Below are positions 35,937-44,933 of a DNA stretch of 64,000 nucleotides, piece by piece. The position numbers were made by a program, and so were the translations under genes. This DNA is from Planctomycetaceae bacterium. Lineage in GTDB: Bacteria > Planctomycetota > Phycisphaerae > Phycisphaerales > SM1A02. The notes below the pieces were generated by a model. It worked only from the letters and a program-made list of their open reading frames with translations. It did not search any database and was not told where the DNA came from. How positions within the stretch are numbered: the stretch's first letter is position 1; every line of letters begins with the position of its first letter. The stretch spans positions 150,576 to 214,575 of the forward strand of contig CANLHK010000005.1 of the NCBI GenBank assembly GCA_947490615.1. Direction: 5' to 3'.

Positions 35937-37172
35937 TCAGTTGAACCGCAATTCGATGAGCGAGAAATCGTCGTCCCAACTCGCCGTCGCCGCCGCAGCG
36001 GGGATATCGGCCACCGCAACACCGCGCCCTTCAAGCATGACCCGCGTGGTCTCACGGACCACCGCATCGAGCAGGCCTTCTGCTGGGCTTTCCTGCAGAA
36101 ACGCAGCCAAACTCTCCACTCCCCAGATTCCACCACCAAGGAGGTGGAGTTCAAACACGCCGTCCGAGAAGAGGTAGAGCCGGTCCTTCGGCTCGAGGGT
36201 CATGCGCATCGTCGGCGCGTCGTAGTCGTCGGTCACGCCCACCATGTAGGTCGTCGACTCCAGTTGATGCAGCGTGTCGCCGCGCAGCAACATCGATGGA
36301 GGGTGCCCACCTCCTGCCCAGGCGAGTTCGCGCGTGCGACGGTCGTAGACGCCGTACCACACGGTGAAGTACATCCCGTCGTGTCGCGCCATCGGGAAGG
36401 CTGCGTTCAACGCGCTGAGCAGTCGAGTCGGATCGAGAAGTTGCTCGCGCTCGAGTGAGCCCGAGCGAATCAAGTTCATCGCCGACACACCCATGAGCGC
36501 AGGACCAACGCCGTGACCCGAGACATCGAGCACATACGCCGCAAGATGATCTTCGTCGATCCAGTGATAGCCAAACACATCACCGCCGAGTGACTCGCAA
36601 GGAACAAAGCGCCAATCCGCCTGCACGACTCCATCCATCGGCGGATCGAGCAGCGAGCGCACATAGCTCGCGGCGCGATGAATCTCCGCCTTCATGTGCG
36701 CCTCGCTGGCGCGCAGTGCTTCGTAGGCAGCGTTGCGTTCGAGCTGCATGCGAAATCCCCGCGAGTGATGGCGAATCCGCGCCACGAGTTCCACAGGATG
36801 CGGAAGCTTGACGAGGTAGTCGCTCGCGCCGCGCGCAAACGCATCGGCCTTCACCGCGGGATCTTCCTTACCCGTGAGCATGAGCACAGGAACATCGCGC
36901 AGCAGCGCGTTGGCGCGGTAGGCGGGCAGCAACTCAAGGCCGCTGAGACCTGGCATCTCAATGTCCTGCAGGATGACCGTGGGCTTGAACTCCAGCGCCG
37001 CGGCGATGGCCTGTGTCGGGTCTTGCACGCTGCGGTACTCGCAACCGCCGCCATCACCGCCACCCGCACCGTTCTGGGCAAACTGCGCTGCGATCATGCG
37101 ACGCACCGCCTCGCCCACGATGGCTTGGTCGTCGATCAGAAGCACGCGGTCGGTGGTGTTCATGGACTGCAT
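35937..37172 (-). CDS. Response regulator: WspR-like receiver fused to PP2C/SpoIIE-type serine phosphatase
   Basis: REC 'VLLIDDQAIVGEAVRR...FKPTVILQDIEMPGLSGLELL...ASDYLVKLPHPVELVARIRHHSRGF'; PP2C motifs 'SLGGDVFGY', 'YVLDVSGHGVGPALMGVSAMNLI', 'AGGGHPPSMLL', 'LYLFSDGVFE', 'DDFSLIELRF'. Confidence 0.93.
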   Translation of the reverse strand: MQSMNTTDRVLLIDDQAIVGEAVRRMIAAQFAQNGAGGGDGGGCEYRSVQDPTQAIAAALEFKPTVILQDIEMPGLSGLELLPAYRANALLRDVPVLMLTGKEDPAVKADAFARGASDYLVKLPHPVELVARIRHHSRGFRMQLERNAAYEALRASEAHMKAEIHRAASYVRSLLDPPMDGVVQADWRFVPCESLGGDVFGYHWIDEDHLAAYVLDVSGHGVGPALMGVSAMNLIRSGSLEREQLLDPTRLLSALNAAFPMARHDGMYFTVWYGVYDRRTRELAWAGGGHPPSMLLRGDTLHQLESTTYMVGVTDDYDAPTMRMTLEPKDRLYLFSDGVFELHLLGGGIWGVESLAAFLQESPAEGLLDAVVRETTRVMLEGRGVAVADIPAAAATASWDDDFSLIELRFN

Positions 37173-37187
37173 AGAGATTCCTGAGTG

Positions 37188-42841: not shown

Positions 42842-42845
42842 CGGG

Positions 42846-44933
42846 TCACGCCTCCACATCGGATTGAAGGCGGAAGCGCGCCGCAGCATCTTGCAAGACG
42901 GCGACCGCGTGCGCGAGTTCATTGGCCACGCGTCCAAAGTCCTCCGCCGCCGCCGACGATTGACGCGCGCCGCTGGCAACTTGCACCACCGCCTGTTCGA
43001 TCTGCGCGATGCCCGCCGACTGACTCGACATGCCCGTGCGCACCTCGGAGAAGCTGGCAAACGAGGCGTCGATCGAGCTGACGATGCTCGCAAGTTCGGT
43101 CGCGGTCTGCGTGACCTCGCCAGTGCCCTCGCGCATTTCCGCGGTGAAGCGGCTCATCTCATCAACACCCGCGACAACCGAGGCCTGCATCTGTTCGACG
43201 ATGCGATGGATGTCGAGTGAGGCGCCCGAAGTTTGGTCGGCCAACCGACGAATCTCTCGGGCCACGACGAGGAAGCCGAGTCCCGCGTCGCCCGCCTTCT
43301 CTGCTTCGATCGCGGCGTTCACCGAGAGAAGATTGGTCTGGTCGGCGACCTTTGAGATCGCGACCACGACGGAAGAAATGGCAGCGGCCTTCTCGGTGAT
43401 GATCTGGAGGCGGTCGGCAATCTCCTGCGTGGCCGCATCGAGTCGCGCCATCTTGGTGCTCACGGCCTCGAGTCGAATGCGACCGCGCACGGCGGAATCG
43501 GCGGTCGTGCGCGCGCCCGCGTCGACCGACTCGATCGCGCGAAGGAGTTCGGCGCCCGTCGCACACATCTGTCGCACCGCCGCTGCAATCGACGCGGTCG
43601 AGGCACCAAACGCTCCGACCGCGGCGCGCTGCTCTTGACTCGTCGCCGCCAACTGCACGCTGGTGGCCGCGAGTTGCGCGCAACTTCCTCGAACCGTCCC
43701 CACGATGCCTGCGAGCCCGGTGTTCATGTCGTGCATCGCGCGCACGAGCTCGGACGATTCATCGCCACCATCCGTCACCGCCTCTTCACGCGTCGACGAG
43801 AGATCACCTGAAGCAATGCGCGTGGCGAGTGCTTGTGCGTTGCGAACCTTTCGCGCCGTTCCGATCGCGCCCAGCGCCAGCACCGCCACGACCACGACAA
43901 GCCCTGCGAGTGCGGTCAGCATGTTGGTCAGGAACACCGCGCTCACACCAGCCATGGCTGCGCTGACAGGTGTCCGCACGAGGAGGCGCCATTGCCCAGT
44001 CGGCACGAGCCCTGTTGCGAAGTAGCACTCTTCGTCGGTGACAGGATCGCGGGCAATCCACGGCGTGTCGCCGCGGAGTTCCGCGTCTTTCAGGAGTGCG
44101 TCCCATGGAGAATCCGCCACATTGGTGGCGCGCAACGCCGTCGCCGTGCCGTGGCGCGAAGACGATCCATCGCCATGGCCATCCGTCGTTGCCGCAATAA
44201 ACCGACCGCGCGTCACGAGGAAGATGTCGGCACCGAGTTGCGCGGCGATCGCGTCCATGCGCTGTTGCACCCGCGTGAGCGTGACATCGATCCCCGCGAT
44301 TCCCATGAAGCGCCCATTCATCGAGATGGGAACCACCGTCTCAATGATGTCGGTGCCGAGATAGCTGTAGGGCTTGGTGATGGTCGCCTCACGAACACCG
44401 CTGCGTTCGAAGCGTTCCTTTGGATAGGCGTACCAGAGGCCGCCGCCCTCCGCGGTTTCCTGCAATGGCTCGAGCGTGACGCCCGTCGCGGACTTCGCAT
44501 CACGCTTGAAGTAGGGATAGAAGCGACCGCCTTCGCCAAGCGCCGCAGCAGGAACACCATCGTGCGCACCAGCAGCATCGCCACCATCGCCGTTGGGTTC
44601 GTAGGCGATGTAGGCGGCGTAGATGCTCTCCTCGGAGCGAGCCACGCGCTCAAGCAGTCGCAGCGTTTCGGCGCGTCGTCCAAACTGACCCGACTCCTGC
44701 CCAAGTGCGAGCATGTGCGCCATCGCCACCGTGCGTTGGTTGGAAAGGTCGACCTCTCGCACCGCAAGACCCGTGGCGTGTTGCAGTTCTTCTTGCAGGC
44801 GCCCCGTTGCATCCGACCAGGCGCGGTAGCCGTTCAGTGCCACAACGCAGACAACCAGCACCGCAGCGGGCAGCACGCCCAGAAGCAGGCTTCGCCCAAG
44901 CAGTGATCGGTGAAAGGCAATGGAACGCGCCAT
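42846..44933 (-). CDS. Methyl-accepting chemotaxis protein with periplasmic Cache-like sensor (WspA position)
   Basis: TM1, dCache-like region ('GGLWYAYPKERFERSGVREATITKPYSYLGTDIIETVVPISMNGRFMGIAGIDVTL'), TM2, HAMP-like region, signalling hairpin 'VADQTNLLSVNAAIEAEKAGDAGLGFLVVAREIRRLADQT'. Confidence 0.93.
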   Translation of the reverse strand: MARSIAFHRSLLGRSLLLGVLPAAVLVVCVVALNGYRAWSDATGRLQEELQHATGLAVREVDLSNQRTVAMAHMLALGQESGQFGRRAETLRLLERVARSEESIYAAYIAYEPNGDGGDAAGAHDGVPAAALGEGGRFYPYFKRDAKSATGVTLEPLQETAEGGGLWYAYPKERFERSGVREATITKPYSYLGTDIIETVVPISMNGRFMGIAGIDVTLTRVQQRMDAIAAQLGADIFLVTRGRFIAATTDGHGDGSSSRHGTATALRATNVADSPWDALLKDAELRGDTPWIARDPVTDEECYFATGLVPTGQWRLLVRTPVSAAMAGVSAVFLTNMLTALAGLVVVVAVLALGAIGTARKVRNAQALATRIASGDLSSTREEAVTDGGDESSELVRAMHDMNTGLAGIVGTVRGSCAQLAATSVQLAATSQEQRAAVGAFGASTASIAAAVRQMCATGAELLRAIESVDAGARTTADSAVRGRIRLEAVSTKMARLDAATQEIADRLQIITEKAAAISSVVVAISKVADQTNLLSVNAAIEAEKAGDAGLGFLVVAREIRRLADQTSGASLDIHRIVEQMQASVVAGVDEMSRFTAEMREGTGEVTQTATELASIVSSIDASFASFSEVRTGMSSQSAGIAQIEQAVVQVASGARQSSAAAEDFGRVANELAHAVAVLQDAAARFRLQSDVEA

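What the first reader, a model, noticed from the sequence alone, without database searches (positions are those of the whole stretch)
35937..44933. Wsp-like chemosensory operon with a PP2C phosphatase in place of the diguanylate cyclase output
Seven contiguous minus-strand genes with tiny overlaps follow the Pseudomonas wspA-B-C-D-E-F-R order: MCP, CheW, CheR-TPR, CheW, CheA with C-terminal REC, CheB, response regulator. The last gene has a REC plus a PP2C/SpoIIE-type phosphatase and no GGDEF. From memory of Pseudomonas Wsp, the MCP hairpin (NAAIEAEKAG), the CheB receiver (VAIVNDLAVACEALRRA...LILMDLIMP) and the RR receiver (VLLIDDQAIVGEAVRR...DYLVKLPHPVELVARIRHHSR) all look Wsp-like. This suggests a Wsp-type sensor array wired to protein dephosphorylation, perhaps anti-sigma partner switching, instead of c-di-GMP. 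I know of no characterised system with this wiring.
Basis: partly seen in the sequence, partly recalled or inferred. Interest (0 to 1): 0.9.

Follow-up and report, generated by a model that had tools for sequence, protein, structure and literature searches.

The report
Wsp sensor array with phosphatase output
A bacterial sensor array known from Pseudomonas, where it makes the biofilm messenger cyclic-di-GMP, here ends in a protein phosphatase, and this overlooked version turns out to be spread over at least eight bacterial phyla and probably switches gene-expression factors on and off instead.

Summary
In detail: window 35937-44933 (minus strand) is a seven-gene operon, MCP, CheW, CheR-TPR, CheW, CheA-REC, CheB, REC-PP2C, in an unnamed planctomycete. 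Its CheA falls in one strongly supported clade with WspE. Its response-regulator receiver is closest to WspR among all solved structures. The phosphatase motifs are intact, and no other WspR-type receiver was found in the genome. The operon is syntenic in congeners and beyond the genus.

It is not a one-off swap. Of 80 named-genome loci with this REC-PP2C, 40 carry CheA and CheB on the same strand and 28 show all seven genes, in at least eight phyla. In a receiver-only census, Planctomycetota gave 18 PP2C and no GGDEF; Pseudomonadota gave 29 GGDEF.

No characterised Wsp-PP2C system was found. However, PP2C regulators in such clusters were catalogued in 2012, Burkholderia WspH shows that Wsp output can be swapped, and the Shewanella che1 locus carries a partner switch. 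A 2021 survey placed Wsp only in beta- and gammaproteobacteria with WspR or WspH output; the PP2C branch extends that considerably. Substrate and signal remain inferred.

The parts
42846..44933 (-). MCP (WspA-like signalling hairpin, PDC/Cache-like periplasmic sensor, two TM helices)
   Evidence: Pfam MCPsignal E 3.7e-27, PDC_1 just below its cut-off; 40.5% identity to Azoarcus WspA over 306 aa of the cytoplasmic part, TM helices at residues 15-33 and 339-357
42365..42841 (-). CheW (WspB position)
   Evidence: Pfam CheW; 34% to Azoarcus WspB; start from homologues
41166..42380 (-). CheR methyltransferase with C-terminal TPR-like region (WspC position)
   Evidence: Pfam CheR; aligns with WspC incl. 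TPR end, 28%
40537..41148 (-). CheW (WspD position)
   Evidence: Pfam CheW; 31% to WspD
38285..40540 (-). CheA-REC hybrid kinase (WspE clade)
   Evidence: Pfam Hpt/H-kinase_dim/HATPase_c/CheW/REC; 45% to WspE over full length; in WspE clade, support 100
37188..38288 (-). CheB methylesterase (WspF)
   Evidence: Pfam; 44% to WspF
35937..37172 (-). Response regulator: WspR-type REC, about 49-residue helical stalk, SpoIIE/PP2C phosphatase
   Evidence: Pfam REC + SpoIIE; REC best PDB hits WspR 3i5a/3bre; AlphaFold model pLDDT 90, helix 126-174; metal and acceptor Asp conserved
44959..45783 (-). Upstream co-oriented one-TM protein of unknown family, conserved in the genus; possible accessory
   Evidence: no Pfam; 52-67% identity in 7 congeners; not found beside the operon outside the genus
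34767..35882 (-). Saccharopine dehydrogenase-like gene directly downstream; syntenic neighbour, not thought to be part of the system
   Evidence: Pfam; 76-87% identity at the same place in congeners and in L068, L069, L073

Best explanation
This is a Wsp-clade (alternative-cellular-function) chemosensory array whose response regulator carries a PP2C phosphatase. The MCP senses an unknown periplasmic signal through a PDC-like domain; CheR-TPR and CheB set its methylation. CheA (WspE type) phosphorylates Asp70 of the WspR-type receiver. By analogy with WspR and RsbU, phosphorylation dimerises the receiver, the long helical stalk aligns two PP2C domains, and the phosphatase switches on. The most likely substrate is a phosphorylated STAS anti-anti-sigma protein; once dephosphorylated it captures an RsbW-type kinase and frees a sigma factor. 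Shown here: gene content, clade membership, conserved catalytic residues, and RsbW/STAS adjacency in relatives. Inferred: phosphotransfer, activation on phosphorylation, STAS substrate and sigma-factor output in this organism.
For: Pfam architecture of all seven genes. Receiver best PDB matches are WspR, 147 and 145 bits, next 79. Receiver profile: WspR-type 125-235 bits, every other receiver in the genome at most 75. CheA in one clade with Azoarcus, Ralstonia, Mesorhizobium and Novosphingobium WspE, support 100, apart from E. coli, Ralstonia and the genome's own flagellar-type CheA. CheA 45%, CheB 44%, MCP cytoplasmic part 40.5% identity to the Azoarcus Wsp proteins. Invariant D14, D15, D70, K122 of the receiver and D198, D216, D337, D402 of the PP2C. 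Single helix 126-174 between the domains in the model; fold matches RssB and WspR. RsbW-type HATPase_c_2 and/or STAS genes within about 1.5 kb of the REC-PP2C in nine loci, checked by Pfam in seven; in two Acidobacteria MAGs the kinase follows the regulator at the end of the wsp cluster. Own genome holds an RsbW/STAS pair (C25) and other STAS proteins. Linker-dimerisation activation of PPM phosphatases, proposed to extend to receiver-controlled ones: PMC12143880.
Against: In this genome the RsbW/STAS pair is unlinked, and it is also conserved in order-level relatives that gave no WspR-type receiver, so it is not a dedicated partner. Only about 9 of 90 REC-PP2C loci have adjacent STAS or RsbW genes. 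Many planctomycete REC-PP2C genes have no CheA-CheB pair nearby (26 of 80). No expression, phosphotransfer or phosphatase data exist. RssB shows that a REC-PP2C fold can act in other ways.
Confidence: 0.68

Rival explanations
1. The PP2C acts on substrates of Hanks-type Ser/Thr kinases or other phosphoproteins rather than on a STAS protein, so the output is general protein dephosphorylation, not partner switching.
For: Most REC-PP2C loci, including this one, have no STAS or RsbW gene nearby. Hanks-type kinases are common in planctomycetes (general knowledge; not counted here).
Against: The domain is of the SpoIIE/RsbU type, whose known substrates are STAS proteins (established knowledge); RsbW and STAS genes sit beside it in distant relatives.
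Confidence: 0.15
2. The output reaches c-di-GMP indirectly, as in the SiaABCD pathway, where a PP2C, a STAS protein and a switch kinase control a diguanylate cyclase.
For: The genome has three GGDEF proteins; SiaA is a fold neighbour; SiaABCD is described in PMC9239204.
Against: No GGDEF gene near this operon; kinases beside relatives are RsbW-type HATPase_c_2. The own REC-GGDEF receiver is not WspR-type, 68 bits.
Confidence: 0.08
3. The receiver-phosphatase is mainly an adaptor, like RssB of enterobacteria, and the phosphatase activity is secondary or controlled with opposite sign (phosphorylation inhibits).
For: Closest full-length fold is Pseudomonas RssB. The sign of control cannot be read from sequence.
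Against: The catalytic Asp are invariant over 30 homologues, unlike the degenerate E. coli RssB domain (general knowledge).
Confidence: 0.09

Closest known systems
Pseudomonas/Azoarcus Wsp R-system (WspA-F, WspR)
   Same: Gene order, CheA clade, CheA-REC architecture, CheR-TPR, CheB, MCP hairpin, receiver family and helical stalk
   Different: Output is PP2C instead of GGDEF; periplasmic sensor is PDC-like instead of the four-helix type; different phyla
Burkholderia Wsp H-system (WspH; PMC8552884)
   Same: Wsp core with a different enzyme behind a WspR-type receiver; effect independent of c-di-GMP
   Different: Output is a hybrid histidine kinase; wspH lies 5' of the cluster
REC-PP2C regulators in CheR-TPR/ACF clusters (PMC3447774, 2012)
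   Same: The same combination was listed as one of many output types
   Different: Not characterised there, not tied to the Wsp clade in the text read, distribution not mapped
Shewanella oneidensis che1 locus with CrsR/CrsA (PMC9855816)
   Same: A chemosensory gene cluster encoding a partner switch, acting on RpoS
   Different: F7-class array, not Wsp; CrsR carries its own anti-sigma domain; the link from Che1 to CrsR is still a proposal
Pseudomonas aeruginosa RssB (3eq2, 3f7a)
   Same: REC-PP2C architecture, best full-length fold match
   Different: Receiver is not of the WspR type; not encoded in a Wsp operon (general knowledge)

Membership tests
Wsp (ACF-class) chemosensory system | Operon order MCP-CheW-CheR-CheW-CheA-CheB-RR | tested here: met
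Wsp (ACF-class) chemosensory system | CheA belongs to the WspE clade and carries a C-terminal receiver | tested here: met
   Clade support 100 in three trees; REC in CheA
Wsp (ACF-class) chemosensory system | Receiver of the output regulator belongs to the WspR family | tested here: met
   WspR best in PDB; 201 bits against at most 75 for other receivers
Wsp (ACF-class) chemosensory system | CheR carries a TPR region | tested here: inconclusive
   Pfam TPR only E 0.074; alignment with WspC supports it
Wsp R-system (WspR) | Output regulator is a GGDEF diguanylate cyclase | tested here: not met
   REC + SpoIIE/PP2C
Wsp R-system (WspR) | WspA-type four-helix periplasmic sensor | tested here: not met
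   Periplasmic part about 300 aa, PDC_1-like, against about 160 aa in Azoarcus WspA; surface sensing itself not testable
Wsp H-system (WspH) | Output regulator is a REC-hybrid histidine kinase | tested here: not met
RsbU/SpoIIE-type partner-switch phosphatase | Intact PP2C catalytic residues | tested here: met
   Invariant D198, D216, D337, D402; aligned with SpoIIE motifs
RsbU/SpoIIE-type partner-switch phosphatase | Dedicated STAS and RsbW partners linked in the genome | tested here: not met
   Not linked in this genome, but STAS and/or RsbW genes adjoin the regulator in nine relatives
RsbU/SpoIIE-type partner-switch phosphatase | Dephosphorylates a STAS protein | not testable with these tools
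   needs biochemistry

The most novel reading that the evidence does not exclude
The PP2C-ended system is a major and possibly the original branch of Wsp, and the textbook c-di-GMP Wsp of Pseudomonas is a derived, mostly pseudomonadotal offshoot: one old sensory core with exchangeable outputs (PP2C, GGDEF, histidine kinase, HD-GYP, nucleotide cyclase), whose commonest form outside Pseudomonadota controls sigma factors by dephosphorylation.
Probability: 0.3. Interest if true: 0.8.

Novelty: new variant of a known kind. Interest (0 to 1): 0.62.

Why it matters
Wsp is a textbook surface-sensing pathway, treated as a system of beta- and gammaproteobacteria with c-di-GMP or histidine-kinase output (PMC8552884). 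Here the same core, recognisable down to the receiver, drives a protein phosphatase in planctomycetes and at least seven other phyla. Automatic annotation hides this: freshwater planctomycete genomes were reported to carry WspE-WspRF (PMC6461901), although in the two MAG loci of that kind examined here (L066, L069) the regulator is a REC-PP2C. If confirmed, it links chemoreceptor arrays to general-stress-type sigma control. It also gives a natural test of the proposal that receivers and coiled-coil linkers are exchangeable between phosphatases, cyclases and kinases (PMC12143880).

Tried and rejected
(1) A WspR-type REC-GGDEF elsewhere in the genome: rejected; the only REC-GGDEF scores 68 bits against 201. 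(2) Non-Wsp origin of CheA: rejected by the trees. (3) PP2C version ancestral: the large tree suggested a paraphyletic PP2C grade with two changes, but a smaller tree and the AU test do not reject one clean split (p 0.94), and the receiver tree puts all GGDEF rows on one side with support 83 only; left open. (4) Sampling bias: the first survey was seeded with REC-PP2C; a receiver-only census was run to correct it. (5) The upstream one-TM protein as a core part: not found beside the operon outside the genus. (6) A dedicated STAS/RsbW partner in this genome: not found; the C25 pair is conserved in order-level relatives beyond the genus. (7) One search failed on coordinates, on handle type; one search mislabelled CheA and was replaced.

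Full report
Observation. The window region encodes seven contiguous minus-strand genes. Pfam supports each: MCP, CheW, CheR, CheW, CheA with a C-terminal receiver, CheB, and a receiver fused to a SpoIIE/PP2C phosphatase. Homologues place the true starts so that neighbours overlap by up to 16 bp or lie at most 17 bp apart. The genome is an unnamed 3.26 Mb planctomycete assembly, 97% complete. A congener (G015) matches the contig of L066, a MAG titled ZH-13MAY13-plancto74; the freshwater planctomycete study PMC6461901 uses MAG names of this form. That suggests the freshwater CL500-3 or Nemodlikiaceae group; this is an inference.

Conservation. The regulator has an orthologue in 14 of 15 congeners. 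The full operon is visible in nine congeners and in one further genus. The flanking genes, an upstream fucokinase-type gene and downstream saccharopine dehydrogenase, DUF1080 and glucose/sorbosone dehydrogenase-type genes (names of the last two by resemblance, not scanned), are also syntenic, including in more distant L068, L069 and L073. The locus is therefore stably inherited.

Is it Wsp? The receiver and stalk match WspR of P. syringae and P. aeruginosa at 147 and 145 bits; the next PDB sequence scores 79. A receiver profile separates WspR-type receivers (125 bits and more) from all other receivers (at most 75), and the window's regulator is the only WspR-type one in its genome. CheA is 45% identical to Azoarcus WspE over its length. 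It lies in one clade with four WspE references, support 100, apart from E. coli, Ralstonia, Sinorhizobium and the genome's own flagellar-type CheA. The MCP hairpin matches WspA at 40.5%, but the periplasmic sensor is PDC-like and about twice as long.

Output. The PP2C keeps all acidic catalytic residues over 30 homologues and aligns with SpoIIE. The AlphaFold model (pLDDT 90) shows one helix, residues 126-174, joining receiver and phosphatase. The nearest full-length fold is Pseudomonas RssB, with WspR among the next. Work on RsbU shows that a coiled-coil linker dimerises and activates such a phosphatase and proposes that receiver domains use the same route (PMC12143880). Activation by phosphorylation is inferred from this.

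Distribution. A scan of named genomes with the regulator returned 80 loci. In 40, CheA and CheB lie on the same strand; 28 show all seven genes. Phyla named: Planctomycetota, Thermodesulfobacteriota, Lentisphaerota, Pseudomonadota, Acidobacteriota, Ignavibacteriota, Myxococcota, Elusimicrobiota (most are MAGs, and the Myxococcota record is titled only Deltaproteobacteria). Twenty-six lack a CheA-CheB pair in the stretch; two of these still show some Wsp genes (L122, L131). Because that scan was seeded with the phosphatase form, a receiver-only census followed. Planctomycetota: 401 genomes, 22 hits, 18 PP2C, 0 GGDEF, 4 others, one of them not classified further. Thermodesulfobacteriota: 201 genomes, 5 GGDEF, 3 PP2C plus the seed. 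Pseudomonadota: 301 genomes, 29 GGDEF, 4 others, no PP2C besides the seed among the loci classified. The output thus largely follows phylum.

Evolution. In the CheA tree, GGDEF-linked and PP2C-linked rows need one or two changes; a single split is not rejected (p 0.94) and the direction is unresolved. The receiver tree agrees. It is better called a branch of Wsp than a recent replacement.

Target. RsbW-type HATPase_c_2 and/or STAS genes lie within about 1.5 kb of REC-PP2C in nine of about 90 loci (L082, L084, L087, L101, L120, L125, L134, L138, L247), checked by Pfam in seven of them (all but L087 and L125). In L082, L101, L120, L125 and L134 a Wsp cluster precedes them on the same strand; in Acidobacteria L120 and L125 the kinase directly follows the regulator. 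At about 1-3 strong RsbW-type kinases per genome here, I estimate well under one such neighbour by chance. In this genome the RsbW/STAS pair sits on another contig and also occurs in order-level relatives beyond the genus, so it is a candidate, not a proven partner.

Literature. CheR-TPR clusters with family-2C phosphatase regulators were listed in 2012 (PMC3447774). A 2021 survey of 794 Wsp clusters found only WspR or WspH outputs and only beta- and gammaproteobacteria (PMC8552884). Shewanella's che1 locus encodes the CrsR/CrsA partner switch (PMC9855816). Planctomycete papers annotate WspE-WspRF without noting the phosphatase (PMC6461901). Searches covered only open-licence PMC papers, so subscription work, including the 2010 classification of chemosensory systems, was not read.

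Verdict. A real, conserved, uncharacterised variant of a known kind. The identity is secure; the sigma-factor output is likely but inferred; the breadth of the variant is the main new point.

Noticed in passing
L075:7546-11170 and L128:8326-11167: Wsp operons ending in two regulators with WspR-type receivers: REC-class III nucleotide cyclase followed by REC-PP2C.
   Followed up: partly
L042:5230-7290 (-), L043, L044, L053: In congeners of the window's genome a WspR-type receiver is fused to an FAD/NAD-binding oxidoreductase domain (PF13454 in L042 and L043), an odd output with no CheA nearby.
   Followed up: no
L045-L049, L055, L056, L240, L072: WspR-type receivers fused to HD-GYP-like domains, mostly with a GAF domain between; in L072 one sits in the Wsp operon before the REC-PP2C.
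   Followed up: partly
L239:10143-11846: A planctomycete Wsp operon ending in REC-HisKA-HATPase-REC, a WspH-like output outside Burkholderia.
   Followed up: no
window 44959-45783 (-): Conserved one-TM protein of no known family just upstream of the MCP, seen only in this genus.
   Followed up: partly
own genome C18:10749-12545: A second MCP 39% identical to the operon's MCP, including part of the sensor, may feed the same array.
   Followed up: no
26 of the loci L077-L142: Many planctomycete REC-PP2C regulators with WspR-type receivers have no CheA-CheB pair in the stretch seen.
   Followed up: no
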